This document shows positions 4,493 through 50,494 of a stretch of 50,515 nucleotides of DNA, in pieces. The DNA lies in the NCBI GenBank assembly GCA_903861125.1, contig CAIOTF010000052.1:1-50515 (forward strand), written 5' to 3'. Position numbers and translations under genes: made by a program. Origin of the DNA: an uncultured Ignavibacteriota bacterium. Lineage in GTDB: Bacteria > Bacteroidota > Ignavibacteria > UBA10030 > UBA8401. Under the pieces are notes generated by a model. The model saw only the letters and a list, made by a program, of their open reading frames with translations, did no database searches and was not told the origin of the DNA. Within the stretch, counting starts at the first letter, position 1. The number at the start of each line of letters is the position of its first letter.

Positions 4493-4933
4493 TTACCACG
4501 GCCGCTTATTCCACGCCAGCCAATAAAAACCAAGATCCTTTAACAGCATCGCAAAATTATCGAAATCAACCGGCTTCGTAACATAACTGTTGGCATGATA
4601 TTCATACGCCATTGCCACATCACGTTCGCCGTCGGATGTGGTAAGAATGACGACAGGAATCATATGCATGGTCGTGTCGCTTTTTATTTCCCGTAACACT
4701 TCCAGACCATCGATGCGCGGCAAACGCAAGTCGAGCAAGATAAGATCAGGCAAGGGGTATTTGGACCGATTCGAATATCGTCCGCGCCCTTTCATATAAT
4801 CCAGCGCCGCTTCGCCATCCTCAACATGACTGATCTGATTCGCCACTTGAAACTCTTCAAGATTGCGCTTGACTAATTCGGCATGATCGGGATTATCCTC
4901 CACCAGCAAAATCGTTAACGGATCACCATTCAT
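4493..4933 (-). CDS. Single-domain response regulator (Rcp1-like)
   Basis: This 146-residue protein is a receiver domain with no output domain. The acidic pair is in LLVEDNPDHAEL, the phospho-acceptor Asp is in LILLDLRLPRIDG, a Thr follows in VVILTTSDGE, and the Lys is in SYVTKPVDF. Length and the PDHAEL and GRG(R/K)Y-like features fit the Rcp1 family, which usually pairs with multi-PAS or phytochrome-like kinases as a phosphate shuttle. Its ATG overlaps the stop codon of the upstream histidine kinase by 4 bp (ATGA), so the two are translationally coupled and are the likely cognate pair. The receiver-first kinase follows downstream, so a relay from kinase to shuttle to the second kinase is plausible but inferred. 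Confidence 0.92.
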   Translation of the reverse strand: MNGDPLTILLVEDNPDHAELVKRNLEEFQVANQISHVEDGEAALDYMKGRGRYSNRSKYPLPDLILLDLRLPRIDGLEVLREIKSDTTMHMIPVVILTTSDGERDVAMAYEYHANSYVTKPVDFDNFAMLLKDLGFYWLAWNKRPW

Positions 4934-7900
4934 GATAATTTTTCCTTTCGCAGGTGTTGGATTGATGGCAATGTAAAATTGAATGTTGAACCTTTTTTAT
5001 ACCCTTCGGATTCCACCCAAATTCTTCCGCCGTGCACTTCAATAATGCGCCGTGCGAGCGCCAGACCGATACCTGAACCTTTCGACGAGGCATCCAGTTT
5101 GTTGAACAGGCCAAAGATGGTTTCGTGATACCGGGAATCTATCCCTTTTCCATTATCGCGCACAAAGAAGATACGTTCATCACCCTTCTCCCGCATTCCA
5201 ATATCGATTCGCGGTTCCGGCTGATCCTCCATAAACTTGAGCGCATTTTCAATCAGATTTTGAAGCACTTCAAAAAGACGATGTCGGTCGGCATGCACGA
5301 GCGGTAGTCCGGCCTGAATTGCGACGGTCGTATTTCCGTTGGAGATAGGACCCGAAAGCAGCGTGATCACTTCCTGCGCCAGGATATCCAACGCGATCTC
5401 GCTCGGCGGATTGATAATGCGTCCGATACGTGAAAGCTCCAGCAGGTCTTCAAGCAGACCGTGCATCTTATTGGCTGCATCGGCAATGCGTTTCAGATCG
5501 GAATCGAACCTGTCATGCCTGCCGCGTGCAAGATCTTTCAGCAGCCCTCCGGAAAATCCTTTGATGGTAATGAGAGGGCTTTTTAAGTCGTGTGAGACCG
5601 TATATGTGAAACGTTCCAGTTCGGCATTCTTTTCCTGCAGTTCTTTCTCCTTCCGTTTGCGGTCCGTGATATCTTCGAAGATGGTCGCAAATGATCCTTT
5701 TGCCGGTGAAATGATACCGATGTGAAAATGCCGGTCCAATGGAGGATAATATGTTTCGAATGCGTATGGTATTCCGGTATCAGCGACAGATGCATATTCA
5801 TTAAAGTACGGAGGGGTCAGCGTTTTGTATAATTCACTCGCTAGTAAACCACGTGCATTTGCCTGGGAAAGTCCCGTATGTTTCTCGTAGGCCGCATTGA
5901 CGTCGATAATACGATAATCTATTGCCTTTCCGCCGTCATAGATCATTTCGTGAAGTGCTACCCCTTCCGTCATATTCTCAAACAGTGTCCGGAATTTTTG
6001 TTCGCTTTCCTGCAGCGCTTCTGCCAAATGCTTCCGTTCGGTGATGTCTTTTATCGTGCCGACCATCATGACGGGTTGCTGCTGTTCGTCAAATTTCAAT
6101 TCACCCACACCATGCACCCAACGTGCCGACTGATCGCTCTTGCGGATAATTTTATATTCTTTATCAAACTTTGTTTTTTTGCCGATGACCTCCTGATAAA
6201 AATACTCCAGCATAATTTTTTGCCATTCCGGATGAATAATTGAGCTCCAGCCGTTAATGGATTTATCATACTCGGCATCGATTCCAAAAATGGAATCGAG
6301 AATTTGTGAACTGCGCCATACACCGGTGGTAATATCCATAGAATATGTGCCAAGTTCAGCGATTGTCTGCGTTTCTTTTAAAAATTTCTCGCTCTCTTTC
6401 AGAGATTTTTCCATCTGCTTGCGAAGAGTTATGTCGATCGTCACAGCAATTGACCGTACGATATTGCCTTTCTCGTCATATTCAGAAACGGCTGTGAGCA
6501 GTGTATCAATAATTTGTCCGTTCTTTTTTACGAATTGATATTCAATATTATTACAAAATCCCCTCTTCATAAATTCCGGAAGAACGGTTTCATTGGCGTA
6601 TCTCCGCGACGCTTCAGTAAGGAATTCTGATGATTTTTTCCCGATCACCTCGTCCCTTTCATACCCTAACGTGGTCAACCAGTATTCGCTGACACTGTTC
6701 AGAACACCTTGTGAATTGATAGAGTGCAACATCACCGGAGTATTGTTGTAAAACGAACGGTATTTTTTCTCGCTCTCACGCAATGCCTCTTCGGTTCGTT
6801 TTCGTTCGGTGATGTCCAGCAGCGACGCAAGAAACTGGTGTACCGACCCGTCCGGGTTACGCTGACACGTAACACTCAATGTGGTATGGACTGTCGTACC
6901 ATCTTTTCGAACGAATCGTTTATCGAGTTCATAAGCATCCCGTTTACCCGATACTACCTGATTAAACAGTTCAAGATCGGAATCTATATCATCCGGATGG
7001 GTCAATTCGACCCACGTCAGCGCCATAAGTTCTTCTTTGGTATAACCGAGCATTTGGCATAAACGGTCGTTCACTTCCACCCACCCTTTTTCCGGCGAGG
7101 TTACACAAATACCGATCGACCCGATCTCAAAATATCCCTGATATTTTTCCTTGCTCTTTTTAAGATGTTCCTCCGCCACTTTCCGTTCCGTGATATCGCG
7201 AAAAACGCCGTATGTTCCGACAAAACCATTTTCAATATCTCTTTTCGGAACTGCCGTTACAATTATGTTCCTTTTTTCCCCTCCGGGCTGAATGATTTCA
7301 AGTTCATAAACGCTTTTATCCCCTTGGGCCCTCGCCGAACTCTCCCGTTGAACAAGGTTAAACTGTTCATCACTAACAAACTGATGAAGATTCTTTCCAA
7401 CCAACTGTCCGGATTCAACACCGAAGATCTCTTCAGCGGCACCATTGGCAAAATCAAATTGTTCCTGCGGATTTACAAAGCCGATCCCTTCACCTGTGCT
7501 CTCGATGATGGTGCGGAATCTCTCTTCGCTCTCACGCAGCACTTCTTCCATAACGTATTTTTCCGTAATATCGGAAAAAACCAGCACCACGCCGTGAGTC
7601 TTTCCTGCATCATCTTTTATGGGTGCAGCACTGTCCGCGATCTGATATTCATTACCGTCTTTTGAGAGCAGCACCGTATGATTTGCCATCCCGATGATTC
7701 CGTCCGTTTCCAGCACTCGTGTTACCGGATTAACAACAATCTGGCGCGTTTCCGCATTGACGATATTGAATACTTCCAGCAGCGGTTTCCCTTTTGCTTC
7801 CGTTAAGGACCACCCGCATAATTTTTCGGCAACCGGATTGATATGTGCTACCCGACCTTCAGCATCGGTGGAAATAACGCCGTCGCCGATGGAGTTCAGT

Positions 7901-8961
7901 GTGATGGAAAGATATTCCTCGGTAGACCGCAACGTTTTTTCCGAATCAAGTTTCACCTGTAAATTCTTTACCTTGTTCTGTTTCGCGACAAATCCAATGA
8001 ATGCAGAGGCACTCATCACCAGAAGTAGAATCGTAACGACCAGGATCCAGATCCGTTCATTGAAAGAAGAATATACTTCTGAAATATCCATTTTTGTGAC
8101 GATAAACCAGGGAGAATCAGGAACAACACCTACTTCTGCCATGACATCCACGCCGCGATAATCTTTCCCTTCCACTATTCCATCTTTCACAATTACCGCT
8201 TTTACCGCCGGCAGATTGTTATTTTCTTTTATGCCGATTCGTAAATTGAGCGGTATTTCGTTATTGAACCGAAGCTGATTAAGATACACCACATCATCAC
8301 CTTCACGGCGGATGAGTAATGTCTCCCCCGATTTGCTGGCGGAGGGCCATCGCTGAATAAAAGGATACAAGTACTTTTCGGGATCGATACGAAGCGCAAT
8401 GGTGCCGATAACGGTTTTATTGTCTGACGCATCCATAATGGGAATCAATATTTTCAAATAGATCTTTTTGCTTTGCGCGTTATAGTAAAAATCTTCGAAC
8501 ACCACCACGCCGGCTTTAATGCTGTCCATTGACCGTTGTGAGATGTACGAAAATGTCCGGTCTGCTCCTTCGCACACCACAATTTTTTGTTCAAACTTCG
8601 TATCGAGCAGGAATATTGCATCATATTCTTCAGGATTGAACATTTTGCCGATCATGATTTTTAAGCGATTTCCATCATGCGTATCTTTTGTGTCTGCAAG
8701 ATATTTCTTCGCCAGAACAGAAAATTCGGTGTTACGAAGGAAGAATACAGCATCCCACATTCGCTCTTTTCTCCAGCGTACTAATTCGTTTACCTTCAAA
8801 TCGGAGATCACCGAGAGCTGGTGAGCTATATTGGAATTATATTCTTTACGGTAGTTCACATAATAGAAGTAACCGGATAGTATAAACCCTGCCGACAACG
8901 CGATAAATGTACCGGCAAGAAGAAGGTTAAATGTTTTCTGTTTACGGAGAATGTTTTTCAT
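4930..8961 (-). CDS. Membrane-bound sensor histidine kinase with extracytoplasmic sensor region and six PAS domains
   Basis: This is a 1343-residue kinase. TM1 is about residues 12-34, an extracytoplasmic Cache-like region spans about 35-300, and TM2 is about 300-323. Six PAS domains start near residues 349, 479, 604, 731, 857 and 987, several ending in ITERK. The HisKA domain has TVSHDLKSPL with phospho-acceptor His1124. The HATPase region has an N-box (NLIENALKF), a G1 box (DNGKGID) and a G2 box (GSGIGLALARRI). It is likely to autophosphorylate and pass phosphate to the receiver encoded immediately downstream, with which it overlaps by 4 bp. It is the first gene of the minus-strand signalling block and is divergent from the hydrogenase operon across an 808-bp gap. 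The sensed ligand cannot be read from the sequence; a link to hydrogen or redox state is only suggested by position. Confidence 0.92.
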   Translation of the reverse strand: MKNILRKQKTFNLLLAGTFIALSAGFILSGYFYYVNYRKEYNSNIAHQLSVISDLKVNELVRWRKERMWDAVFFLRNTEFSVLAKKYLADTKDTHDGNRLKIMIGKMFNPEEYDAIFLLDTKFEQKIVVCEGADRTFSYISQRSMDSIKAGVVVFEDFYYNAQSKKIYLKILIPIMDASDNKTVIGTIALRIDPEKYLYPFIQRWPSASKSGETLLIRREGDDVVYLNQLRFNNEIPLNLRIGIKENNNLPAVKAVIVKDGIVEGKDYRGVDVMAEVGVVPDSPWFIVTKMDISEVYSSFNERIWILVVTILLLVMSASAFIGFVAKQNKVKNLQVKLDSEKTLRSTEEYLSITLNSIGDGVISTDAEGRVAHINPVAEKLCGWSLTEAKGKPLLEVFNIVNAETRQIVVNPVTRVLETDGIIGMANHTVLLSKDGNEYQIADSAAPIKDDAGKTHGVVLVFSDITEKYVMEEVLRESEERFRTIIESTGEGIGFVNPQEQFDFANGAAEEIFGVESGQLVGKNLHQFVSDEQFNLVQRESSARAQGDKSVYELEIIQPGGEKRNIIVTAVPKRDIENGFVGTYGVFRDITERKVAEEHLKKSKEKYQGYFEIGSIGICVTSPEKGWVEVNDRLCQMLGYTKEELMALTWVELTHPDDIDSDLELFNQVVSGKRDAYELDKRFVRKDGTTVHTTLSVTCQRNPDGSVHQFLASLLDITERKRTEEALRESEKKYRSFYNNTPVMLHSINSQGVLNSVSEYWLTTLGYERDEVIGKKSSEFLTEASRRYANETVLPEFMKRGFCNNIEYQFVKKNGQIIDTLLTAVSEYDEKGNIVRSIAVTIDITLRKQMEKSLKESEKFLKETQTIAELGTYSMDITTGVWRSSQILDSIFGIDAEYDKSINGWSSIIHPEWQKIMLEYFYQEVIGKKTKFDKEYKIIRKSDQSARWVHGVGELKFDEQQQPVMMVGTIKDITERKHLAEALQESEQKFRTLFENMTEGVALHEMIYDGGKAIDYRIIDVNAAYEKHTGLSQANARGLLASELYKTLTPPYFNEYASVADTGIPYAFETYYPPLDRHFHIGIISPAKGSFATIFEDITDRKRKEKELQEKNAELERFTYTVSHDLKSPLITIKGFSGGLLKDLARGRHDRFDSDLKRIADAANKMHGLLEDLLELSRIGRIINPPSEIALDILAQEVITLLSGPISNGNTTVAIQAGLPLVHADRHRLFEVLQNLIENALKFMEDQPEPRIDIGMREKGDERIFFVRDNGKGIDSRYHETIFGLFNKLDASSKGSGIGLALARRIIEVHGGRIWVESEGYKKGSTFNFTLPSIQHLRKEKLS

Positions 8962-9769: not shown

Positions 9770-10267
9770 ATGCCTGAACTTCTAGAACAGCGTGCACAAT
9801 TGCAGGAGACGATGACGTTTCTCGGCGCGATTGCCAGCGGTATTGAAGAAGCGATCGGAGAATCAGCTAACTCAATATCATATCTTGCCGGTAAACGTCT
9901 GGGAATGCAATTCTCCGAACATGCTCCAAAAACAGACGATATCGAAGAAGCGCTCCTGATGGTCGGGAAAGTGCTGCGTGAAAACGATTGCTTATGGCAA
10001 TTCGAACCGTTTAAGGCACATGATCGCCCTCAGATGATCAGTCACACAGAAAAAGGGGATGAAATCATGCTCGTCTTCCGTGAATGTATGATCCGCCAAT
10101 CTCTGTTCAAATTCGGTCATCATCAGAAGGGGTCGCTCTGCAACATGATGTACGGTTTCTTTTCCGGCGCCTTGAAAAATATTATGGGAAAAGAATCGAA
10201 TCTCGAGATCCTTCATGCCGGCGAGAATGGATGCTATAAACGTCTGATTGTTTTCAAAAATTCTTAA
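9770..10267 (+). CDS. V4R-like small-molecule-binding domain protein (first of a pair)
   Basis: This 165-residue soluble protein has a C-terminal half resembling V4R (4-vinyl-reductase-like) domains: a conserved Cys in ECMIR, GSLCNMM, an amphipathic helix MYGFFSGALKNIM, and a terminal beta segment with a Cys near GENGCYKRL. V4R domains are found in bacteriochlorophyll reductase BchJ and as ligand-binding parts of regulators. It has no DNA-binding or catalytic domain, so a ligand- or metal-binding accessory role is inferred. It is paralogous to the protein at 12904-13362: both share the (E/R)C(M/V)IR motif, Gx1-2SLC, and a similar N-terminal helix with (S/G)xxAG(K/R). It opens the operon, 18 bp before the hydrogenase small subunit gene. 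The pair flanking the hydrogenase subunits suggests a role in hydrogenase assembly, sensing or signal transfer. The family call is moderate. Confidence 0.65.
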   Translation: MPELLEQRAQLQETMTFLGAIASGIEEAIGESANSISYLAGKRLGMQFSEHAPKTDDIEEALLMVGKVLRENDCLWQFEPFKAHDRPQMISHTEKGDEIMLVFRECMIRQSLFKFGHHQKGSLCNMMYGFFSGALKNIMGKESNLEILHAGENGCYKRLIVFKNS

Positions 10268-10285
10268 CTACCAACGGGAACGTTC

Positions 10286-11242
10286 ATGTCACAAACAACA
10301 TCAACCAAAAAGGCCCCGGTAACGATCAATACAGAATGGCTGAGCGATTGCTCCGGATGTCATGTTGCTATCGTGGATATGCATGAAAAACTGCTGAATG
10401 TTCTTGAGGCAATCGAAATCCTGCATTGTCCGGTTTTGACCGACATTAAGGATTACCCGAAGGCGAATATCGGATTGGTATCCGGCGCGATCAGAACCGA
10501 GCACGACCGTCATGCAGCAGAGGAAATGAGAAAAAGCTGCGATGTTATTATTGCCTGGGGTTCCTGCGCCGTCTATGGCGGCATTGCCGGTGCAGGGATC
10601 GTCCACTCCAAAGAAGAAATATTTGATGCGGTCTACGGAAACAACAAAACTACGATCTCGCATAATTCCCCTACCACCGGCATTTCTCCTTTTGAAAAAT
10701 TAGTTACACCGATTGATGAAGTGATCAACGTGGATCTCTACCTGCCGGGATGCCCTCCGCATCCTGCTTTTATCTTTGACGCGCTTCTGTCTCTGCTGGA
10801 AGGACGCGCACCAAAAGCAACAAAGGAATCGGTCTGTTCACGTTGCAACCGGACAATGGTTCATACCGATGTGGACAAAATAAAAAAGAATTTTGAAGGA
10901 GTTGCTGAAAAAGAGAATTGTTTTTTGAGTCAGGGGTATATCTGTCTCGGTTCGGTGACACTGGACCGCTGCATGTCTCCCTGTCCGACCAATGGAATGA
11001 TGTGCACTGGTTGCGCCGGTGCAACGATGCAGGTGTTAACAGAACCGAACCGCGACATCCGTACAGAAATAGCAGACAGGATGTCCAAAATAACAAAAAT
11101 CAGCAGAGACGATATCATCAGCGAAATTGAATATTCGGCGAAAAGTCACTATTCCTACACTATGGCGTCAAAGATGATCGGAAAAAAACCAACATTCCTC
11201 ATAAAAAAATGGATAGCCAATACGGAAGCGGAATATGAATAA
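10286..11242 (+). CDS. [NiFe]-hydrogenase small subunit, cytoplasmic, group 3-like
   Basis: This 318-residue protein has the proximal [4Fe-4S] cluster ligands of [NiFe]-hydrogenase small subunits: C22-S-G-C25 in DCSGCHVAIVDMHE, a Cys in AWGSCAVYGG, and a Cys in LPGCPPHP. A C-terminal Cys-rich part follows (CSRC, then CFLSQGYICLG, CMSPC, CTGC), typical of group 3 (MvhG/FrhG/HydD-like) small subunits that carry extra clusters. There is no Tat signal and no C-terminal membrane helix, so it is cytoplasmic. It should pass electrons between the NiFe site and an acceptor, perhaps the ferredoxin encoded downstream. It overlaps the large-subunit gene by 8 bp. No HoxEFU diaphorase, F420 or Hdr partner gene is present nearby. 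Assignment to a subgroup (3c versus another) is uncertain without a tree. Confidence 0.88.
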   Translation: MSQTTSTKKAPVTINTEWLSDCSGCHVAIVDMHEKLLNVLEAIEILHCPVLTDIKDYPKANIGLVSGAIRTEHDRHAAEEMRKSCDVIIAWGSCAVYGGIAGAGIVHSKEEIFDAVYGNNKTTISHNSPTTGISPFEKLVTPIDEVINVDLYLPGCPPHPAFIFDALLSLLEGRAPKATKESVCSRCNRTMVHTDVDKIKKNFEGVAEKENCFLSQGYICLGSVTLDRCMSPCPTNGMMCTGCAGATMQVLTEPNRDIRTEIADRMSKITKISRDDIISEIEYSAKSHYSYTMASKMIGKKPTFLIKKWIANTEAEYE

Positions 11243-12659
11243 GATCATCACGATCGACCCCGTAACACGAATTGAAGGACACGCACGCGTATTTATCAAC
11301 CTCGACGACTCTGGCGGCCTGGAAAAAGCAGGTTTAATTGTTAATGAACTGCGCGGCTTCGAAAAAATACTCGTGGGAATGGAAGCAGACCGGATGCCGT
11401 TGATCACAGGGCGTATTTGCGGTGTCTGCCCAACGGCGCATCATCTTGCCGCATCGAAAGCACTCGACAATGCCGCCGGTGTCCGGCCAACGCCGGCTGC
11501 AAATATTCTTCGCGAATTAATGCTGATGGGACATCTCATTCATTCTCATTGCCTGTCACTCTTTGTTCTGCACGGTCCCGACCTTGTTCTCGGACTTGAT
11601 GCGGATCCGGCTATCAGAAATATCGTCGGCGTTGTGAAAGCGGTGCCCGACATTGCGAAAAAAGCATTGCGGTGCCGCGCCATCGGCCAGCAGATAAACG
11701 AGATGGTCGGCGGTCGGGGAACCCATCCTGTAACTTCTGTTGTCGGCGGAATTACGTTCCTGCTTGATCCGGGAAAGAAAAAACAATTGGAAGCATGGAT
11801 CGACGAAGCTCTTGTCCTTGTTCAGGAACTTGCGCCGATCGCTAAAAGTCTTTTGATGAAACAGCTTGAACTTCATCCGTCCATGCTCACTTCATGGATA
11901 ACGCCTACTTGGAATGTAGGAACAGGAAATAACGGTACGCTCAACCTTTATGACGGAAACATCAGAATTGTTGATGACAAAGGGACACTTTGGAAAGAGA
12001 TCGCCGTCGATACGTATGACCAATACCTGAAAGAATCGGTTCTCGATTGGTCGTACATGAAACAGGTTCACGTGGGTGCAGACGATGCACTTCATATGTA
12101 CCGTGTCGGACCGATGGCACGGTTCAATGCGTGCGAGCGGTACGGAACTCCGATTGCTGATGCCGAAGCTGAATTAATGAGAAAAACATTTGGAACAACG
12201 GTGCATAATACCATTCTTCAGATCTATGCGCGGGTCATCGAATTAATTTACGTTATTGAACGGGCGAAACAACTCATTTCCGATCCGGACATCAACGGCG
12301 AAACGCGCGTTCCGGTAAAATTTCGCGGAGGACGCGGTGTCGGACATGTAGAGGCTCCGCGCGGAACGTTGATCCACGATTACGAAATTGATGCGAACGG
12401 CATTATCCGTGCAGCAAACCTTATAGTGGCAACACAACAGAATTATGCTGCAATCAATGAAACAATTGCTCAAGCTGCTAACGATTTTGTCATCGGAAAA
12501 GATTCCGATCACTCATTGCTCAATGCGGTGGAATTCGGGATCCGGTGCTACGATCCCTGTCTCTCCTGCGCAACACATGCAATGGGACCAATGCCGCTTG
12601 AAATCGTTATCTCGCGCAGCGGCTCCGTTGAACGAACTGTACGAAGAGGTATACAATGA
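11235..12659 (+). CDS. [NiFe]-hydrogenase large (catalytic) subunit, group 3-like
   Basis: This 474-residue catalytic subunit has both NiFe-binding motifs: RICGVCPTAHH (L1, near residue 60) and DPCLSCATHAMG (L2, near the C-terminus), plus DPVTRIEGHA at the N-terminus. All four cysteine ligands are present, so the active site looks intact. After the L2 His there is a 26-residue tail ending in RRGIQ, the peptide removed by a maturation protease; that protease is encoded three genes downstream. The sequence style (DPVTRIEGHARVFI and a short soluble form) fits group 3 cytoplasmic enzymes. Its TGA stop overlaps the ferredoxin start (ATGA). The enzyme should catalyse reversible H2 oxidation or proton reduction; whether it works metabolically or as a sensor is not shown by the sequence. 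Confidence 0.92.
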   Translation: MNKIITIDPVTRIEGHARVFINLDDSGGLEKAGLIVNELRGFEKILVGMEADRMPLITGRICGVCPTAHHLAASKALDNAAGVRPTPAANILRELMLMGHLIHSHCLSLFVLHGPDLVLGLDADPAIRNIVGVVKAVPDIAKKALRCRAIGQQINEMVGGRGTHPVTSVVGGITFLLDPGKKKQLEAWIDEALVLVQELAPIAKSLLMKQLELHPSMLTSWITPTWNVGTGNNGTLNLYDGNIRIVDDKGTLWKEIAVDTYDQYLKESVLDWSYMKQVHVGADDALHMYRVGPMARFNACERYGTPIADAEAELMRKTFGTTVHNTILQIYARVIELIYVIERAKQLISDPDINGETRVPVKFRGGRGVGHVEAPRGTLIHDYEIDANGIIRAANLIVATQQNYAAINETIAQAANDFVIGKDSDHSLLNAVEFGIRCYDPCLSCATHAMGPMPLEIVISRSGSVERTVRRGIQ

Positions 12660-12907
12660 TCCATATATCCATCCACGAACAGGCGTGCCGCGGCTGTCAG
12701 CTCTGCGCAGACATCTGTCCGACAAAGGTGTTCACGTATGATACATCATTGATGAAAGCAATCATTTCTCATGAAGAAGACTGCATCGGGTGTCTTAGCT
12801 GTTCCTATCTCTGTCCGTCCGGCGCTCTTCATCACACAGACCATCACGTTGTAAAAAATTTTTATCATGATCTCGAATTCCTTTCACGGATGGAGAAATT
12901 CTTATGA
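12656..12907 (+). CDS. 2[4Fe-4S] ferredoxin of the hydrogenase operon
   Basis: This 83-residue protein has two four-Cys motifs: CRGCQLCADICPT near residues 10-22 and CIGCLSCSYLCPS near residues 43-55. These bind two [4Fe-4S] clusters. It overlaps the large-subunit gene before it and the second V4R-like gene after it by 4 bp each (ATGA), so production is coupled to the hydrogenase. It is the only obvious electron carrier in the operon and probably accepts electrons from the small subunit. The tail HHTDHHVVKNFYHDLEFLS is His/aromatic-rich and not part of a usual ferredoxin; it may be a docking segment (inference). Confidence 0.9.
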   Translation: MIHISIHEQACRGCQLCADICPTKVFTYDTSLMKAIISHEEDCIGCLSCSYLCPSGALHHTDHHVVKNFYHDLEFLSRMEKFL

Positions 12908-13362
12908 GCGCAGTTTCCGCATCGGTACCAACCGTTGAAGAACACAAAAAAGCATTCACCGAAATCGCCTTTCTGCTGGATATCTTTGCAGCAACAATCG
13001 ACAATATCATGGGGGGATCTACATCCTCGGTCGGTAGGATCGCTGGACGGGAAATGGCAAAAAAACTTCCGGTCGATCTTGTTCATCCGACGCCGACCGA
13101 AGCATTATCTGTTATTGCACAATCGATGAAAAGCGGGTACGAATTTTCGTTCACCGAAGAAAATGATCAGGCAATGGTCACCTTTCAGCGGTGCGTCATC
13201 AGGGATGTCTGTAAAAGCCGTTCGCTTCAGCCGGGATGCTCTTTGTGTAAAATATTCCACTCATATTTTGACGGAATCGTGAACGAATTGATCAGCCGGC
13301 CGACAAAATCCGAACTACTTGAAGCAGGATCATCATGCCGCGTATGCATGAAAATTCAATGA
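12904..13362 (+). CDS. V4R-like small-molecule-binding domain protein (second of a pair)
   Basis: This 152-residue soluble protein is a diverged paralogue of the V4R-like protein that opens the operon. Shared features are an N-terminal helix with SSxGRIAGREMAKKL, TEALSVIAQSMKSG, the RCVIRDVC motif, PGCSLCKIFHSYFDG, and a Cys-rich C-terminal strand (SSCRVCMKI). It has more cysteines than its partner (CVIRDVCK, GCSLC, CRVC), which would suit metal or Fe-S binding. It sits between the ferredoxin and the maturation protease, overlapping both. Function is unknown; an accessory, redox-sensing or scaffold role between hydrogenase and the chemoreceptor-like protein is inference. Confidence 0.62.
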   Translation: MSAVSASVPTVEEHKKAFTEIAFLLDIFAATIDNIMGGSTSSVGRIAGREMAKKLPVDLVHPTPTEALSVIAQSMKSGYEFSFTEENDQAMVTFQRCVIRDVCKSRSLQPGCSLCKIFHSYFDGIVNELISRPTKSELLEAGSSCRVCMKIQ

Positions 13363-13856
13363 TCACGCCGGAACGGTCGACAATTCTTATCGTCTGTATC
13401 GGCAATGATATTGTTGCCGACGATGCCGTCGGTTATCATCTGTATCATGCGTTGAATGCCTCCGGTCTCCCGCCGGATGTGAAGACACTCTATCTCGCTG
13501 TCGGCGGTATCAATCTGCTCAATCATCTTGACGGATCGGAACAGGCGATTATCGTGGTTGATGCCGTGAAATTTGGGAATAAACCGGGAACCATCGTCAA
13601 ATCGCAATGGAATTCCCTCCCGCTTCCCTTGCACTCGCCGGTTTCGATCCACGGTATCGGACTGCGCGAAGTATTTGAAATCGTTCCGGTTCTGTATCCC
13701 GGCAAGTACACCGACAACATATTCTTTATAGGAATCGAAGGGGCCGAGTTCAATCAGTGCGGCGCCGGTTTATCGCCTGATGTCGCAAATGCGGTGGAAA
13801 AAGCAATTCTTATCATCCACGAAACAATAGAATTACTACAGGAGGTGATTCAGTAA
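13359..13856 (+). CDS. Hydrogenase maturation protease (HycI/HoxW family)
   Basis: This protein of about 165 residues starts at the ATG at 13359, which overlaps the preceding stop (ATGA); an in-frame ATG at 13335 is possible but would overlap more. It has the family pattern: a beta strand and loop with CIGNDIVADDAVGYHL (the acidic Ni ligand), a central DAV motif in IVVVDAVKFG, and a His in SIHGIGL. Such endopeptidases bind the Ni of the nearly mature large subunit and cut the C-terminal peptide after the L2 His, closing the active site. Its likely substrate is the large subunit encoded upstream, which has a 26-residue tail. Its stop overlaps the ATG of the chemoreceptor-like gene by one base (TAATG). 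Confidence 0.9.
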   Translation: MITPERSTILIVCIGNDIVADDAVGYHLYHALNASGLPPDVKTLYLAVGGINLLNHLDGSEQAIIVVDAVKFGNKPGTIVKSQWNSLPLPLHSPVSIHGIGLREVFEIVPVLYPGKYTDNIFFIGIEGAEFNQCGAGLSPDVANAVEKAILIIHETIELLQEVIQ

Positions 13857-15442
13857 TGGACCGCAACGGAAATATAACGCAGGATACATTCGAACTGGCG
13901 GTACAGCTGCAGCCGACGGAAGAAATTGCACGGATTGCCAACGCGATGGTTGAAGGACGTCTCGACGAACGGTGCAATGCATCGCAATTCTCCGGTGAGT
14001 CCCGTGTATTGATCGATCAGATCAACAGCATGCTCAATACGCTCATCTCTCCTCTTCATCTCACGGCTCACGCGATCGACGAAATCGCTCATGGTAAAAT
14101 TCCCGACTTCATCATTGAAGAATATAAAGGCGAATACAATCAAATAAAACTCAATCTGAATACCCTCCTGGCGACTCTCTACGGAATACATTATGAAACT
14201 CAAACACTTGTCTCCTCAATAAAAGAAGGACGGCTCGACGCCAGAGGCAACGATTGGGATTTCAGCGGTAACTGGAAAAATCTGATTGGCGGGGTGAACG
14301 AAACCTTGGATGCAGTCATTGATCCTGTTCATGAGGCCAGCAAAATTCTGGGCCAATTGTCGGAATACAAACTCGGTTCCCGCATGCACGGTAAATATCA
14401 CGGGGACCATGCGACAATAAAAAAAGTTCTGAACAAAACCGGTGATTCGCTTGCCCAGGCAATTTCGAAGGTCTCAGAATCTGTTACCAACGTGCGCGCC
14501 GCGGTGGTGAACATCTCGGAAAAAGTCGAACTTGTCTCTTCCGGAGCAACGGAACAGGCACGAGCGATTGAGGAGACATCGGAAAATCTCATGCAGATCT
14601 CCGTTACGTTTCAACAGGCGGTATCCAATACTCAGGAAGCAAAAATAAATGTTCAGCGTTCACAGGACTCGATGGTGACAGCCAAAGAAGTGATGGTGAA
14701 AATGAGCGATGCAATGGGAGAGATTCGGCTATCTACCGACAGCACCGTGGTGATCGTACAAGAGATCAATGAAATTACCAAACAAACGGATATACTCGCT
14801 ACTAGCGCGGCCGGTAAAGCCGAAAAGGTACGTTCGTCTGCCGGCGGTTTCGGTATTGTAGCAATGGAAATCCGACGGCTTTCCGTCCGCTGCGATGAAG
14901 CGGCAACGACATTGAAAGGAATGCTTAAAACAAATACGTTAGAACAATCGGAAAAAGAAAACGAAAAACTGCAAACTATTATCGATGATCTGGATGAGAT
15001 TGCAATGCTCTCCAATTTTCTTGGAGTGAATGCGGCAATTGAAGCAGCGCACGTGGAAGCTGCCGGACAGGCGTTTGAAACCCTCACCGATGAAGTCCGG
15101 CTGCTGGCTAAGCGGTCTGCGGAATCAGCAAGCAAAACGGAAAAGCTGATTAATCAATCGGTGGACCTGACGAAAAAAGGAGAGATGATCACGCAGGAAC
15201 TCGACGGACATCTTGATGTCATCTTCCAGGCAACACAAAATGTCGGCCGGATGACTGATGAAATATCCTTGGCAACAAACGACGGCGCTACGCGGATCGA
15301 GGAAATTAATATGGCGGTGCAGGATATCGATAAAGTAACGACACAAAATATCACAGCTGCCCGCGGATCGATGATGGCAATTAAAGAGCTGGAACAACAA
15401 ACCGTAGAACTGGACACTCTTGTGAAAAAATTTATATTTTAG
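13856..15442 (+). CDS. Soluble chemoreceptor-like (MCP) protein with poly-HAMP array and two signalling-tip-like segments
   Basis: This 528-residue protein has no membrane segment. About four HAMP-like units occupy roughly residues 18-210, with repeating patterns such as MVEGRLD, SIKEGRLD, and a start at each LISP or VIDP. A long helical MCP signalling domain follows. It contains two tip-like segments: residues about 302-342 (EINEITKQTDILATSAAGK, then GGFGIVAMEIRRLS) and about 380-421 (EIAMLSNFLGVNAAIEAAH, then DEVRLLAKRS). Normal chemoreceptors have one tip, so this is a duplicated or tandem hairpin. Both tips depart from the usual CheA/CheW-binding sequence. It is the last gene of the hydrogenase operon. 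It probably transmits a cytosolic signal, perhaps hydrogenase redox state, to a chemotaxis-type kinase; no che gene is in the window. Confidence 0.87.
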   Translation: MDRNGNITQDTFELAVQLQPTEEIARIANAMVEGRLDERCNASQFSGESRVLIDQINSMLNTLISPLHLTAHAIDEIAHGKIPDFIIEEYKGEYNQIKLNLNTLLATLYGIHYETQTLVSSIKEGRLDARGNDWDFSGNWKNLIGGVNETLDAVIDPVHEASKILGQLSEYKLGSRMHGKYHGDHATIKKVLNKTGDSLAQAISKVSESVTNVRAAVVNISEKVELVSSGATEQARAIEETSENLMQISVTFQQAVSNTQEAKINVQRSQDSMVTAKEVMVKMSDAMGEIRLSTDSTVVIVQEINEITKQTDILATSAAGKAEKVRSSAGGFGIVAMEIRRLSVRCDEAATTLKGMLKTNTLEQSEKENEKLQTIIDDLDEIAMLSNFLGVNAAIEAAHVEAAGQAFETLTDEVRLLAKRSAESASKTEKLINQSVDLTKKGEMITQELDGHLDVIFQATQNVGRMTDEISLATNDGATRIEEINMAVQDIDKVTTQNITAARGSMMAIKELEQQTVELDTLVKKFIF

Positions 15443-15657: not shown

Positions 15658-16140
15658 ATGAATATTTTTAATCTATTTACAAGCCGATATACTCAGAATC
15701 AGACTTCGAATGCCGGTGTCCGGAAGCAGGAAAAGAATGCCGCTGATGCAAGTCGGGAAATAGATAAGTCACGTTTTGAATCGGTGATGGTGAAAAGAGG
15801 TATTCCGTCTCATGTGATCGAGACGCTTTTCAAAACAATGGATGTGAACGGTGATGGGAAGATCAATGGAAATGATTTTCAGCGTGTGCTGCAAATGCAT
15901 GCTCAAAGCGTTCGGCAGACAGAAACTTCCAAATCAAAAACTGAGACTGAACCGGTAAAGAAGGCAGCCGTTAACAATGCTCCTCCTCCGGAAACCAAAC
16001 AGACTCCGGTAAACCCGCAGACAAATTCCCGGCAAAAAGAATATTCTGTCTCGGCGGCAGCGAAAAAAATATTTACGTATACCAGGAACGGCTCCCCCTA
16101 TTTCTACCCCGTCAGCACATTTGTGAATGCACTCGTCTGA
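15658..16140 (+). CDS. Single EF-hand protein of unknown function
   Basis: This 160-residue protein has one canonical EF-hand loop, DVNGDGKINGND (near residues 62-73), with Asp/Asn ligands at positions 1, 3, 5, 9 and 12, preceded by a helix (HVIETLFKTM) and followed by FQRVLQM. A low-complexity linker rich in Thr, Lys, Pro and Gln follows, then a short ordered C-terminus (SAAAKKIFTYTRN). No signal peptide is obvious. A Ca2+-binding role is likely for the loop, but the biological role is unknown. It is the only plus-strand gene between the hydrogenase operon and the minus-strand TonB receptor, so a connection to the operon is possible but not shown. Confidence 0.75.
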   Translation: MNIFNLFTSRYTQNQTSNAGVRKQEKNAADASREIDKSRFESVMVKRGIPSHVIETLFKTMDVNGDGKINGNDFQRVLQMHAQSVRQTETSKSKTETEPVKKAAVNNAPPPETKQTPVNPQTNSRQKEYSVSAAAKKIFTYTRNGSPYFYPVSTFVNALV

Positions 16141-25127: not shown

Positions 25128-26597
25128 CTATTGTTCGTACATACCGGAATGTGCGCAGATAATTTCCATGAGCATCACGAGACCGCGAACGACCATTTGC
25201 GCCCGTTCCTGAACGAGTTGCCCTTGGTTATCGGATGTTCCAAGTCCCGGTGAGATGAAGATATTCGCATCGTACGAGATTGTTGGAATGATTCCCATTT
25301 GCGAACAACCATCCTGCAGAAGATTTGAACCAGCATACATATCTTCGATGGAGAAAATCGGGATTCCGAGTTTACCGCTCTTCCAGCTCTCTTCGTAATT
25401 GATCTCAACGGCGCAGCTGTTGTAGCTTTTGATGATCTTGAAGAACGATTTGATACGCGGATCGATCTTCGCAAATTCCGCAACAACTACTTCGTATAGA
25501 TCATCGACGGTTTTTGTAACATTTTTCGGATTGTCGCGGAGAAGTTTCAATGCGGCAACCATTCCGGAGAGTGATTCTTTACCCGGATCGAATGTTACAT
25601 ACGCCGCTTTGCCGTACGAACCGGTCGTACCGTACCGATTTCCATGAAGGCCGAGCGCACGCCGTATCGGCACCATGGCATCCTCTTTTCCGATGATCAA
25701 TCCGCCGTGCGGAAAACTTGGAGCTTTGTCGATGCTGTAGATCATCACATCGGCACCGATCTTTTTAATGCTCGTTCCAACGAGCGGCAAACCCCATGCG
25801 TTATCGATAACGTACGGTACATTGTATTCTTTTGCCAGCTTTGCTATCCCTTTGGAGAGATTTGGTGTGCCGTCACTGTCTCTGTCGCCGTAACCGTAAC
25901 CGGGTGTATCGTAACCAAGGGAAGAGAATCCGGAAAGAAGGGTTTCGTTCCGTTGTGCGGCCGTGCGCATTGCTTCGAGCGATTCTTTCACTTTCACATT
26001 CTTCAACAACGGAACGGGATGATATTTAATACCATGCACCGGATATTCCGCACCCTCTAACGGCACATATACCGTGTCGAGATTATTCTGACGTTTGCCG
26101 GAAAATCCGAGTTCGCCGGACGTACTTCCGCGATCCGCGAGGATATCCTTATACTTCGGCGGAAACGGACGTCCATAACCGCCATGATGATGAATGTGCC
26201 GTTCCATCGGGAGGATATAGCGTGTGCGGTAGTTATCGCCGCGTCCCTGCATCGGAGGAGTCATGAGTGAATCAATTGAAACCCACAACCCTGCTTCGCA
26301 GGTGCTGACCGGTGCTGCATCATACTCATCACCGTAGACATCCTTCACGATCTCGCGTATCTGATCGACATAATATCCCAGCGGGACAACCTTCTTCGAT
26401 TCCGTTTGAATCACTTTTTCCAAATCTTCGCGCAGCGGGGCCGGGCATCCGGAAATTGCGCCGGTGAGTCCTATTGCTCCCTTCAATTCGGAAGGCATAT
26501 TGAGCGTTTCCGCCGCTTTTTTTGCTTCTGCATAGATCTGCTGCGTCTCAGCCTGAAGTTTTTTATACATTTGAAATTTATGCTTTGGTGCTGCCAT
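25128..26597 (-). CDS. Uncharacterised PLP-dependent enzyme, aspartate-aminotransferase fold type I
   Basis: This 489-residue protein has the features of fold-type I PLP enzymes: a Gly-rich cofactor-phosphate turn (RGDNYRT and GSTSGELGF), Asp in NVPYVIDNAWGLPL (pyridine nitrogen), and a candidate Schiff-base Lys in IYSIDKAPSFPHGGL. The Lys-containing motif and the long N-terminal part do not fit a single known subfamily that I can name; beta-eliminating lyases and SelA/SepSecS-like enzymes are the closest in style. It does not look like OrtB, the fold-type II partner of ornithine fermentation. It is preceded by the small 145-residue gene and the diaminopimelate dehydrogenase-like gene in one operon, so a transamination, lyase or thiolase step on a diamino acid is likely. 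The substrate is unknown. Confidence 0.75.
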   Translation of the reverse strand: MAAPKHKFQMYKKLQAETQQIYAEAKKAAETLNMPSELKGAIGLTGAISGCPAPLREDLEKVIQTESKKVVPLGYYVDQIREIVKDVYGDEYDAAPVSTCEAGLWVSIDSLMTPPMQGRGDNYRTRYILPMERHIHHHGGYGRPFPPKYKDILADRGSTSGELGFSGKRQNNLDTVYVPLEGAEYPVHGIKYHPVPLLKNVKVKESLEAMRTAAQRNETLLSGFSSLGYDTPGYGYGDRDSDGTPNLSKGIAKLAKEYNVPYVIDNAWGLPLVGTSIKKIGADVMIYSIDKAPSFPHGGLIIGKEDAMVPIRRALGLHGNRYGTTGSYGKAAYVTFDPGKESLSGMVAALKLLRDNPKNVTKTVDDLYEVVVAEFAKIDPRIKSFFKIIKSYNSCAVEINYEESWKSGKLGIPIFSIEDMYAGSNLLQDGCSQMGIIPTISYDANIFISPGLGTSDNQGQLVQERAQMVVRGLVMLMEIICAHSGMYEQ

Positions 26598-42348: not shown

Positions 42349-44994
42349 TTATTTTTGATCTTCTGTTAATATGACAACATCCGACCTCTGGTCCCCGCGC
42401 GTGACGATCACGGATTTGCCGTCCGGCGTCCACGCGAATGAGGTGATGAAATAATCGTCAAAATGGGTAAATTGTTTTTGTGGTCCTCCGTCGATCGAAC
42501 GGGTATAAATATTCGACACTCCGTCCGTAGTCACCACAAAACTGATCTCATTCGATCCCGGTCTGGCAAGAATATATTGTGCCGTAAATTTCGGAAGATC
42601 AAAGAGAAGTTGCGGTGTTCCCCCTGCAAGCGATATTGTGAACAAAGAATTCCGTTTATCATCCAAAGAAGCAAACACCACGGAAGTTCCATCATTGGAT
42701 ATTGCCGGACTGTTTCCATTGATCGTTGTAACATCCATCCTTTCGCCTCCAGCGGCAGGTATTTTCATAATCGTATTCGGACCGCGAAACCATGAATCAA
42801 AAATAATCCATTTCCCCGAACGGTCAAACACCGGACGGTAATCTTCCGCATCTTTCGTCATTTGTTTTAGACCTGTTCCATCGGCATGAATGGTCCAAAT
42901 ATTCGGTATGCCGGCCCTATTTGAATTGAATACCAACATGCTGCCATCCGGTGAAATTGAAATTTGCTGCTCGGCATTTTCATCGAATGTAATTTGTTTC
43001 TGATCTTCGCCGTTCAGTCCGATGGACCAAATATCATATGAACCGCCCTGCCGAGAAGCATAATAAACAGTATTGTCTTTACTCACGGCCAATCCGAGTA
43101 AACCGTCATCCCGTAATGTCGTTATTTTTTTCACATGTTTCGAATCGCCATTCGGGACATAGTACAGATACATCTCCCGTTCATTTTGTACGGTGCAGAT
43201 TTTCTTCATATCTCCCGTGACCGTTGTTCCTCCATAATCATTCAGGTCATTCGTAATTTTTCGGGTATCCCCGGAAGGATAGGAGACAAAAAATAACTGA
43301 TTCGAAAATGCCTTAAGATCAAATCCTTCCAATATCAGACCCTTGCCATCGGATAACCATTGCACTTTTCTGATGACTTCCCACTTTTGTTTTGAGAGCG
43401 GCTCTACTTTCCCGGTTACTGCATCAACACCGATCACCTCATGATGAAAACCATCTTTCCAAAGTCCGAGGGCAACGGCAATGATATTACTCTTCGGCGA
43501 CCATGAGGGAGCGCCGCTGATCCATTTATCCCCTTTATATGCAACAATATCTTTTTGCTGCGAACCGTCAGCCGAAGCAACAACAAGGGCAAAATTTCCC
43601 GAGACAGGATAGAGACGGTTAAAGGCAATCCGGCTCTTATCCGGCGAGAATGTGACCGGACCCTGAACATCCGATATTATTTTTATCGGATTACCGCCAA
43701 GCACAGGAATTTTATATAACGAAACATCGGTTGTTTTTTCATCGCTCATCCGATAAAAAATGAAATTACCATCCTCAGAAAATACCGGATCGCCGATGAA
43801 ATTATCCTGCGGAGTTTTGATCTGAATATTGCTGGATGTGGCAAGCTGGCGCACCCAGAGCGAATATTTCCCTTTATCAAATTGTGAATAGCTGATGTAC
43901 CTGCTGTCGGGAGAAATTGCTGCACTCTGGATCTTTCCGGTTGATGTGATCCGGCTGAACTGGAACGAAGAAAATGTTCTATTTTCATGAGGAAGAAAGA
44001 ACATCATTCCTGCAATGACGAAAATAACAATGCCTAATCCGATTCCTCCGTACAACAAGATTCTTTTCTGTTTTACCGGTCCGGCCTTTACGTGCTGCGT
44101 TTCCGATTGCTTCGGCTGCGATGCCGTATCCGCAGCGAATTTTTGATATTCGCCGGAAAAGGCAGGGCGATTGACGCGCGAGCTCTGTTTTTTTAATCTT
44201 CTCAGATCGCGAATGATATCGGACATATGCTGAAACCGGTCGTCCGGATTTTTTTCCAGTGCAGTCTTTAGCAGGAAGTTCAATTCAGCCGGAGCATCCG
44301 GGACATATTTTTGAATGGTCTCGGGATCTTCGTTGATGATGGAATACATCATTGCCGCTTCGTGTTCGCCGCGGAACGGAAGACGTCCGGAAAGCATCTC
44401 GAAGAACAATACACCGAATGCGAAGATATCGGAACGGGGATCGACATTGCCTCCCTGCATCTGTTCCGGCGCCATGTAGGCAAGCGTGCCGACGGTACTC
44501 GATGTGCGGGTAAGTTTCAATGAACCTTTCAGTTTTGCCAGACCAAAATCCATCACCTTTATCTGGTTCTTGGAATTGATCATAATGTTATCGGCTTTAA
44601 TATCCCGGTGGACAATTCCTTTGCTGTGTGCTTCTTCCAATGCTTCAGCAATTTGGATCGCGTAATCAATCGCCGTATCAATTTTGATCTGTCCTTTTTG
44701 AATTGTCTCGCGGATCGTGGCCCCTTCAACAAGTTCCATCACAATAAACTGCTTCCCATCCTCTTCACGAACGTCATGGATCACGCAAATGTTTGGATGG
44801 TTGAGAACCCCGGCGGCCTGCGCTTCCTGAAGGAACCGTGATTGCTCTGTTGTTCCTTTTGCAAGATGATGCGGCAGAAATTTAAGGGCAACGATGCGGT
44901 TCAACTTTGTATCCTGGGCCTTATAGACCACCCCCATGCCACCTTCGCCGATATGCTCAAGAATGGTGTATTGCCCGATTGTTTGACCTGTCAT
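42349..44994 (-). CDS. Transmembrane Ser/Thr protein kinase with C-terminal TolB-like beta-propeller (paralogue 1)
   Basis: This 881-residue protein (ATG at 44994, with TGAGGA upstream) has a PknB-type kinase domain (about 5-265): GEGGMGVVYKAQD, ALKFLP, IVHRDIKADNIM, MDFGLAKL, and an activation segment with SSTVGTLAYMAPEQM. One membrane helix (about 315-338) separates it from a periplasmic beta-propeller of repeated SPDxxxIxY or SPDGSMLVF units (TolB/PD40-like). All catalytic residues look intact. It is the most distal of three tandem paralogues and lies 22 bp from the second. The propeller probably binds an extracellular or envelope ligand. Confidence 0.93.
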   Translation of the reverse strand: MTGQTIGQYTILEHIGEGGMGVVYKAQDTKLNRIVALKFLPHHLAKGTTEQSRFLQEAQAAGVLNHPNICVIHDVREEDGKQFIVMELVEGATIRETIQKGQIKIDTAIDYAIQIAEALEEAHSKGIVHRDIKADNIMINSKNQIKVMDFGLAKLKGSLKLTRTSSTVGTLAYMAPEQMQGGNVDPRSDIFAFGVLFFEMLSGRLPFRGEHEAAMMYSIINEDPETIQKYVPDAPAELNFLLKTALEKNPDDRFQHMSDIIRDLRRLKKQSSRVNRPAFSGEYQKFAADTASQPKQSETQHVKAGPVKQKRILLYGGIGLGIVIFVIAGMMFFLPHENRTFSSFQFSRITSTGKIQSAAISPDSRYISYSQFDKGKYSLWVRQLATSSNIQIKTPQDNFIGDPVFSEDGNFIFYRMSDEKTTDVSLYKIPVLGGNPIKIISDVQGPVTFSPDKSRIAFNRLYPVSGNFALVVASADGSQQKDIVAYKGDKWISGAPSWSPKSNIIAVALGLWKDGFHHEVIGVDAVTGKVEPLSKQKWEVIRKVQWLSDGKGLILEGFDLKAFSNQLFFVSYPSGDTRKITNDLNDYGGTTVTGDMKKICTVQNEREMYLYYVPNGDSKHVKKITTLRDDGLLGLAVSKDNTVYYASRQGGSYDIWSIGLNGEDQKQITFDENAEQQISISPDGSMLVFNSNRAGIPNIWTIHADGTGLKQMTKDAEDYRPVFDRSGKWIIFDSWFRGPNTIMKIPAAGGERMDVTTINGNSPAISNDGTSVVFASLDDKRNSLFTISLAGGTPQLLFDLPKFTAQYILARPGSNEISFVVTTDGVSNIYTRSIDGGPQKQFTHFDDYFITSFAWTPDGKSVIVTRGDQRSDVVILTEDQK

Positions 44995-45015
44995 TATTTC
45001 CTCATTGAACAAATA

Positions 45016-47640: not shown

Positions 47641-47790
47641 AATTTTACTCCTCTAGGTCCCGCTTAAAAACAACGGTAAATTCAAAATCACTTCCACTCG
47701 TAAAAAACACTCGCGGGTGAATTGGAATTTGATCGATCATACGACTTCTTCATTTATTGATTGATTCATTGAAAACATGCCATCACTGGA
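47641..47790 (-). promoter_or_regulatory. Leader of the second kinase gene with degenerate copy of the hairpin upstream of the third
   Basis: At about 47658-47678 the plus-strand sequence (TCCCGCT, A-rich spacer, ACGG) resembles the hairpin before the third kinase gene (TCCCGCT-AAAAAAC-AGCGGGA at 50495-50515), but the second arm is partly lost. On the minus strand it lies 18 bp before the ATG. The remaining part of the gap has no other feature that I recognise; it probably contains the promoter. Confidence 0.5.
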
Positions 47791-50478: not shown

Positions 50479-50494
50479 ATGCACCTCAGGCAAC

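What the first reader, a model, noticed from the sequence alone, without database searches (positions are those of the whole stretch)
9770..15442. Hydrogenase, two V4R-like proteins and a soluble chemoreceptor in one overlapping operon: possible hydrogen-sensing module
Seven genes in order are V4R-like, [NiFe] small, [NiFe] large, ferredoxin, V4R-like, maturation protease and chemoreceptor-like. All junctions from the small subunit onward overlap (ATGA, TAATG or more). The NiFe sites, proximal cluster ligands and the cleavable C-terminal tail all look intact, so the enzyme should be active. No diaphorase, F420 or heterodisulfide reductase partner is present. Known H2 sensors are group 2b [NiFe] enzymes with a PAS kinase, or PAS-linked [FeFe] enzymes; a group 3-like enzyme tied to a cytosolic MCP would be new to me. 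The inference is that H2 or redox state is relayed through ferredoxin and V4R proteins to the chemoreceptor, giving hydrogen taxis or adaptation.
Basis: partly seen in the sequence, partly recalled or inferred. Interest (0 to 1): 0.85.

Follow-up and report, generated by a model that had tools for sequence, protein, structure and literature searches.

The report
Hydrogenase wired to a chemotaxis receptor
A hydrogen-splitting enzyme, a pair of sensor-like adaptor proteins and an unusual chemotaxis receptor are encoded together as one inherited unit in several groups of bacteria, which suggests that these cells steer or regulate themselves by hydrogen, although no experiment has yet shown it.

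Summary
Seven tightly packed genes (9770-15442, +) encode V4R-like A, [NiFe] small, [NiFe] large, ferredoxin, V4R-like B, maturation protease and a soluble poly-HAMP chemoreceptor. A genome-contig scan found 31 loci of the same enzyme clade (51-82% identity): each gene of the six-gene core is present wherever the contig reaches; the receptor follows in 20 (10 lack it, 1 is cut off); cheW lies directly upstream in 9. In one order, all 32 of 141 genomes with the enzyme have the receptor, against 1 of the other 109. The enzyme falls outside the MvhD-linked 3c and Hox 3d branches, and its genome has no MvhD. V4R-like A is predicted to have the V4R/TRAPP/H-NOX fold. The receptor carries two altered but conserved tip copies. 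Best reading: a hydrogenase-coupled chemosensory module; the relay from H2 through enzyme, ferredoxin and V4R to the receptor is inferred. Ten loci keep the core without the receptor, so V4R belongs to the hydrogenase and the receptor is probably one of several outputs; roadblock genes stand beside two of those ten.

The parts
9770..10267 (+). V4R-like protein A (165 aa)
   Evidence: AF2 model pLDDT 81; Foldseek best hits are the MopR/PoxR V4R sensor domains, then TRAPP Bet3 and H-NOX (Z about 12); C106, C124, H149, C155 invariant and E146 nearly so in 36 sequences
10286..11242 (+). [NiFe]-hydrogenase small subunit (318 aa), Cys ligands enough for three Fe-S clusters
   Evidence: PF01058 E 7e-30; best NCBIfam VhuG, below cut-off; 12 Cys columns kept in 38 or 39 of 39 sequences
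11235..12659 (+). [NiFe]-hydrogenase large subunit (474 aa)
   Evidence: PF00374; best NCBIfam VhuA 357 bits against a cut-off of 800; L1 RICGVC, L2 DPCLSCATH and 26-residue tail; trees
12656..12907 (+). 2[4Fe-4S] ferredoxin (83 aa)
   Evidence: PF00037; two CxxCxxCxxxC motifs here and in 39 of 40 family rows, the other (L078) being cut by a contig end
12904..13362 (+). V4R-like protein B (152 aa), paralogue of A
   Evidence: hhalign A against B 98.4% probability; C97, C115, H119, C145 invariant in 33 sequences; no structure of its own was predicted
13335..13856 (+). hydrogenase maturation protease (173 aa)
   Evidence: PF01750 E 5e-14; TIGR00072 above cut-off
13856..15442 (+). soluble chemoreceptor (528 aa): poly-HAMP input, two copies of the signalling tip
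   Evidence: HAMP_2 twice and MCPsignal in two overlapping stretches; 21-member family alignment; AF2 helices 185-359 and 366-527

Best explanation
A hydrogenase-coupled chemosensory module. A cytoplasmic [NiFe] enzyme with complete active-site motifs, on its own branch near groups 3c/3d, exchanges electrons between H2 and its ferredoxin. The two V4R-like paralogues, probably a TRAPP-like A/B pair carrying Cys-rich metal sites, sit on the hydrogenase and change state with its activity or redox poise. In the bacteria with the full operon this state is passed to a soluble chemoreceptor that has stacked HAMP domains and no recognised ligand-binding domain, and from there to CheW/CheA. The likely output is H2- or redox-guided swimming or another CheA-controlled response. 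Shown here: gene content, synteny, co-occurrence, active-site motifs, predicted fold of V4R-A, CheA and FliG in the searched hosts. Inferred: physical contact, A/B pairing, metal sites, electron path, direction of signal, behaviour.
For: Conserved operon in 31 contig-scan loci from several phyla by record title, receptor in 20, cut off in 1. In one order 32 of 32 genomes with the enzyme have the receptor, 31 of them on the same contig, against 1 of 109 without. cheW directly upstream in 9 of the 31 and in 4 of 7 further operon loci; Pfam CheW confirmed on the two tested. The receptor-linked enzymes form one clade, 100/100. CheA in all 20 searched receptor-type genomes and FliG in all 20. Active-site motifs and C-terminal tail kept. 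No MvhD in the genome. Receptor has HAMPs but no other recognised domain before the signalling part. Low dN/dS.
Against: No experiment. Ten of 31 loci keep enzyme and V4R genes without the receptor. CheA and FliG are also in most searched receptor-free hosts (CheA 15 of 17; FliG 9 of 11), so their presence does not discriminate. One genome has a receptor fragment without the enzyme. Both tip copies depart from the CheA/CheW-binding consensus of the genome's four ordinary receptors, so coupling to the same CheA is not certain. Among the window genome's CheW-domain genes none is beside the operon. Ferredoxin could simply feed metabolism. The 141-genome test is not free of shared ancestry, and only about 10 receptor candidates per genome were scored.
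Confidence: 0.6

Rival explanations
1. Metabolic enzyme with an energy-taxis readout: the hydrogenase does ordinary ferredoxin-linked H2 uptake or evolution, V4R proteins are structural or maturation partners, and the receptor senses general redox state, not H2 itself.
For: The core without a receptor persists in 10 of 31 loci; ferredoxin is found in all 31, in part in L078; the catalytic motifs are unchanged.
Against: No ferredoxin-using enzyme is part of the conserved core (neighbours were not all annotated). Roadblock genes stand beside the receptor-free forms L094, L101 and L102 (Pfam-confirmed for L101 and L102). The host already has a group 1-like and a Hox-type enzyme. Tight 32-of-32 pairing with one receptor family.
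Confidence: 0.22
2. A Che-type output other than flagellar taxis: the module controls development, surface behaviour or gene expression through one of several CheA systems.
For: Most receptor-type genomes show several CheA-type matches, 4 to 14 in 16 of 20; a soluble double-tip receptor recalls DosM in the Vibrio F9 system, whose cheA deletion has no detectable phenotype according to PMC7534058 (passages).
Against: The window's genome and G378 (same genus) have a single CheA match each, and in G000 FliG lies on the same contig as that CheA.
Confidence: 0.12
3. Chance or hitch-hiking neighbours: the receptor merely moves with the hydrogenase operon by horizontal transfer and has its own signal.
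For: Patchy presence in the window's order (3 of 98 genomes) suggests transfer or loss.
Against: One clade with the receptor retained in the same place across phyla, overlapping reading frames, receptor almost never without the enzyme in the order tested.
Confidence: 0.06

Closest known systems
[NiFe] group 2b regulatory hydrogenases (histidine kinase-linked H2 sensors; HydDB PMC5037454, passages)
   Same: A [NiFe] enzyme as the input of a signalling pathway
   Different: This enzyme is near groups 3c/3d, keeps a C-terminal tail and a protease gene, has its own ferredoxin and V4R pair, and the linked output gene is a chemoreceptor, not a kinase
[FeFe] group C2 'Chemotactic (putative)' (HydDB PMC5037454, passages)
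   Same: Hydrogenase proposed to act through methyl-accepting chemotaxis proteins, role undetermined
   Different: Unrelated [FeFe] enzyme; a V4R pair is not known to me there (recalled)
[NiFe] group 3c Mvh/Vhu hydrogenases
   Same: Closest curated subunit models VhuA/VhuG; long small subunit with extra Cys ligands
   Different: No MvhD partner in the genome; separate branch
V4R sensor domains of MopR/PoxR/DmpR and TRAPP Bet3
   Same: Predicted fold of V4R-like A; a Cys-Glu-His-Cys pattern resembling the zinc site (MopR ligands and spacing recalled, not read in a call)
   Different: Stand-alone, paired with a second V4R and a hydrogenase; His in place of one Cys
DosM double signalling domain receptor, Vibrio F9 system (PMC7534058, passages)
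   Same: Receptor with two signalling-domain sequences, in a cytoplasmic array
   Different: DosM is a rod with one signalling domain at each end; here two tip copies lie about 75 residues apart around one predicted turn

Membership tests
[NiFe]-hydrogenase | L1 RxCGxC and L2 DPCxxC ligand motifs in the large subunit | tested here: met
   RICGVC and DPCLSCATH
[NiFe] group 3c (Mvh/Vhu type) | Large subunit within the MvhD/Hdr-linked branch | tested here: not met
   18 sequences that I labelled 3c form a branch, 97/95, and the window's clade is outside it. FlpD was confirmed by Pfam beside two of them, L105 and L108; the other labels rest on tree position or ORF starts. No enzyme of known biochemistry was in the tree
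[NiFe] group 3c (Mvh/Vhu type) | MvhD (FlpD) partner | tested here: not met
   No PF02662 match in the genome
[NiFe] group 3d (Hox) | Within the HoxFU-linked branch and beside HoxF/HoxU | tested here: not met
   Outside; the genome's HoxF/U-like genes lie beside another large subunit on C38
[NiFe] group 2b sensor | Adjacent cognate histidine kinase in the operon and group 2 large subunit | tested here: not met
   Best curated models are Vhu/Frh/sulfhydrogenase types. The PAS kinase at 4930-8961 is on the other strand; in L048 a different 778-aa ORF with a receiver-like start lies upstream instead
V4R (PF02830) | Curated sequence cut-off | tested here: not met
   V4R-like A 12.7 bits against 31
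V4R/TRAPP/H-NOX superfamily | Fold | tested here: met
   For protein A, on a predicted model: Foldseek E 7e-6 to 5kbg_A, prob 1.00; Z 12.1, rmsd 3.9, 142 aligned to 5kbi_A. B by its profile match to A only
Methyl-accepting chemotaxis protein | MCPsignal domain above cut-off | tested here: met
   104.9 bits against 34.6, in two stretches
Methyl-accepting chemotaxis protein | Canonical CheA/CheW-contact tip | tested here: not met
   Both copies differ from the near-identical tips of the genome's four ordinary receptors
Methyl-accepting chemotaxis protein | Methylation and CheA control | not testable with these tools
   Needs biochemistry

The most novel reading that the evidence does not exclude
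A new class of H2 receptor: a [NiFe] enzyme of an undescribed branch signals through a pair of V4R metal-site proteins into a double-tip soluble chemoreceptor. The same hydrogenase-V4R core has been joined to different outputs in different lineages (chemoreceptor plus CheW, or roadblock/LC7 proteins in other bacteria and, as a separate branch, in Methanomicrobiaceae-like archaea), making it a general hydrogen-to-signal adaptor.
Probability: 0.4. Interest if true: 0.87.

Novelty: new variant of a known kind. Interest (0 to 1): 0.76.

Why it matters
H2 is a main energy currency in anoxic communities, yet how motile cells find or avoid it is poorly known (general knowledge). A conserved operon that joins a hydrogenase with complete active-site motifs to a chemoreceptor, in FliG-bearing Geobacter-type and Ignavibacteriae-type bacteria, offers a direct, testable candidate. 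It also adds a branch to the [NiFe] tree whose constant partners are V4R-like proteins, links that fold to redox enzymes, and offers a receptor with a duplicated tip for studying how chemoreceptor arrays are built.

Tried and rejected
Tried without result: viral-contig scans with the receptor (none confirmed) and the large subunit (one partial match over residues 1-83, not followed). PDB sequence searches with the V4R profiles gave no credible relative; only the fold comparison did. A direct BLASTP of the two receptor tip halves shows no similarity (E 6.2), so their being copies rests on both matching the same MCPsignal positions 23-95. The AF2 receptor model is of middling quality (pLDDT 71, pTM 0.36), so whether each tip folds as its own hairpin or both lie in one long hairpin is open; the model favours the second. 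Rejected: ordinary 3c or 3d enzyme; decaying gene cluster.

Rows dropped: L072 (taken as the same contig as L048/G240: equal contig length, equal identity) from alignments and trees; L074 (cut by the contig end) from the receptor alignment; L087 and L095 from the V4R-A alignment; a group 1 sequence, L103 and nine others (mostly near-copies) from the first tree (89 of 100 rows kept); 57 of 100 rows in the careful tree. dS of V4R-A against L048 could not be computed, so 13 of 14 comparisons count. CheA search: 37 of 38 handles given were held (L089 not); L074 and L078 were not given. FliG was searched in 31 genomes, without the archaeal ones. Not done: HydDB's own classifier; any characterised Mvh, Frh or Hox sequence in the tree; a structure for V4R-like B; a genome-wide search for F420-type partners.
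Full report
WHAT IS THERE. The seven genes are real, intact and packed as described. Calling them one operon rests on spacing: an 18-nt gap, then overlaps of 8, 4, 4, 28 and 1 nt. The large subunit has both ligand motifs and a 26-residue tail after DPCLSCATH. The small subunit has 12 Cys columns kept in 38 or 39 of 39 aligned sequences, enough for three clusters. The proteins look cytoplasmic; hydropathy is borderline only in the small subunit (1.64 over 19 residues; the other six at most 1.36).

THE GENOME. G000 (4.19 Mb, 54 contigs) has two more [NiFe] large subunits, both on contig C38: one that matches the Pfam model over its whole length (taken as group 1-like) and one beside HoxF/HoxU-like genes. 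It has no MvhD (FlpD) match. It has one CheA match, three CheW-domain genes counting that CheA, four ordinary receptors besides the operon's own, and FliG.

CONSERVATION. Within the window's order 3 of 98 genomes have the enzyme at E at most 1e-120; all three carry all seven genes in the same order. Thirty-one lie at 51-82% identity (L072-L101, L103), mostly Desulfuromonadales/Geobacter-type and Desulfobulbales-type records plus one Ignavibacteriae record and some others; many are MAGs whose names may be wrong. L072 is the G240 contig already found. A profile scan of all six frames finds V4R-A in 29 of 29 loci whose contig covers it (L095 in part; L093 and L103 start downstream), V4R-B and protease in 30 of 30 (L078 ends early) and ferredoxin in 31 of 31 (L078 in part). 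The receptor follows in 20 of 31; L078 is cut off; ten lack it (L092-L101). cheW lies directly before V4R-A in nine (L078-L083, L085, L086, L090), and in four of seven further operon loci (L185, L186, L188, L190). Pfam confirms CheW for the two tested. L102, a more distant relative (46%), has the V4R pair and a roadblock gene but no receptor. Of the 48 loci L104-L151, 42 have no V4R match, several of them being short contigs; the other six (L106, L121, L125, L132, L144, L148) are Methanomicrobiaceae-like or Euryarchaeota records with ferredoxin, one V4R and two roadblock matches (roadblock confirmed by Pfam in L106).

CO-OCCURRENCE. In the order of Geomonas (141 genomes) the receptor (E at most 1e-60) is in 33 and the clade enzyme (E at most 5.5e-190) in 32; all 32 have the receptor, 31 on the same contig, in the ones I checked about 1.1-1.3 kb apart, and one (G494) on two contigs. 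The exception, G537, has a receptor fragment at a contig end behind large ORFs that I did not annotate. Another 47 genomes have only weaker enzyme homologues and no such receptor; 61 have neither at these thresholds. At most about 10 receptor candidates were scored per genome. Some of these genomes are also in the contig scan, and shared ancestry inflates the count.

TREE. With 57 rows and group 3b as outgroup (careful method), the receptor-linked enzymes form one clade (100/100) inside a V4R-linked clade (100/98; 99/94 with the long-branched L102), apart from the branch labelled 3c (97/95), the Hox branch (96/79) and the archaeal V4R-linked branch (99/100). So the bacterial V4R-linked enzymes appear to have one origin; the archaeal ones do not group with them, but the deep order is weakly supported (bootstrap 61-63). 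The quick tree of 89 rows gives the same main groups. The group labels are mine; FlpD beside two 3c rows and HoxF/U beside one Hox row were confirmed.

THE V4R PAIR. The AF2 model of A (pLDDT 81) matches the V4R sensor domains of MopR and PoxR, TRAPP Bet3 and, more weakly, H-NOX (the second tool warns that Z under about 13 can be a common arrangement in helical proteins, but the top rows here are one superfamily). C106, C124, H149 and C155 are invariant and E146 nearly so in 36 sequences. B is a paralogue with invariant C97, C115, H119 and C145. TRAPP subunits of this fold form heterodimers (structures titled so), hence the proposed A/B pair.

THE RECEPTOR. It has HAMP domains and no recognised ligand-binding domain. 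MCPsignal matches twice, profile positions 6-95 at residues 268-357 and 23-172 at residues 360-495, so the tip region occurs twice, although the two halves no longer resemble each other by BLASTP. Both differ from the near-identical tips of the genome's four ordinary receptors, yet in the 21-member family they are among the best kept parts (majority residue 0.75 and 0.81, the later HAMP region 0.77-0.81, 0.65 overall, 0.46 in the stretch between the tips). AF2 draws one turn, at residues 360-365, between the two copies (pTM 0.36). DosM of Vibrio is a known two-signalling-domain receptor but of different build (PMC7534058, passages).

FUNCTION. Shown: a conserved unit of hydrogenase, V4R pair and, in part of the family, receptor and CheW; CheA and FliG in all 20 receptor-type genomes searched. 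These are also in most receptor-free hosts (CheA 15 of 17, FliG 9 of 11), so this is consistency, not proof. Inferred: H2 oxidation or enzyme state reaches the V4R pair, directly or through ferredoxin, and changes the HAMP stack of the receptor. The receptor-free loci say that V4R serves the hydrogenase first; roadblock genes beside L094, L101 and L102 suggest other outputs.

LITERATURE. Searches of the open library: Geobacter + Mvh + receptor, hydrogenase + V4R, chemotaxis + hydrogen sensing + group 3c, hydrogenases of Geobacter, chemoreceptor/hydrogen taxis (25 of 82 listed), NiFe + receptor + Geomonas, roadblock + Methanoculleus, H2-sensing and hydrogenotaxis, sensory hydrogenase + chemotaxis. 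No listed title or start of abstract, and no passage I saw, describes this operon; no paper was read whole. The Geobacter chemotaxis survey PMC2577667 does not contain the word hydrogenase in its main text. Subscription papers, including Coppi 2005 on Geobacter hydrogenases, were not read, so prior mention cannot be excluded.

VERDICT.

Noticed in passing
L094, L101, L102, L106, L121, L125, L132, L144, L148: Roadblock/LC7 matches beside V4R-linked hydrogenases (Pfam-confirmed in L101, L102, L106); L102 also has a Ser/Thr kinase-TPR protein next door. V4R/Bet3 folds and roadblock domains together recall small-GTPase regulators (recalled), a possible second output.
   Followed up: partly
window 4930-8961 (-), 4493-4933 (-): 1343-aa multi-PAS histidine kinase and a receiver-like protein upstream on the other strand; similar ORFs are upstream in L071 (same genus) but not in L048.
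   Followed up: partly
window 15658-16140 (+): Small protein with weak EF-hand matches near the cut-off after the receptor gene; an ORF of the same length and similar start is in L071, none in L048.
   Followed up: no
window 42349-50493 (-): Three neighbouring large genes with similar protein-kinase starts; the one tested is a Ser/Thr kinase with PD40 propeller repeats.
   Followed up: no
L183 (G537 contig C212 end): Receptor of this family seen from about residue 59 on, without the hydrogenase, behind large unannotated ORFs at a contig end; real variant or assembly artefact.
   Followed up: partly
window 25128-26597 (-): 489-aa ORF without any Pfam match at E 1e-4.
   Followed up: no
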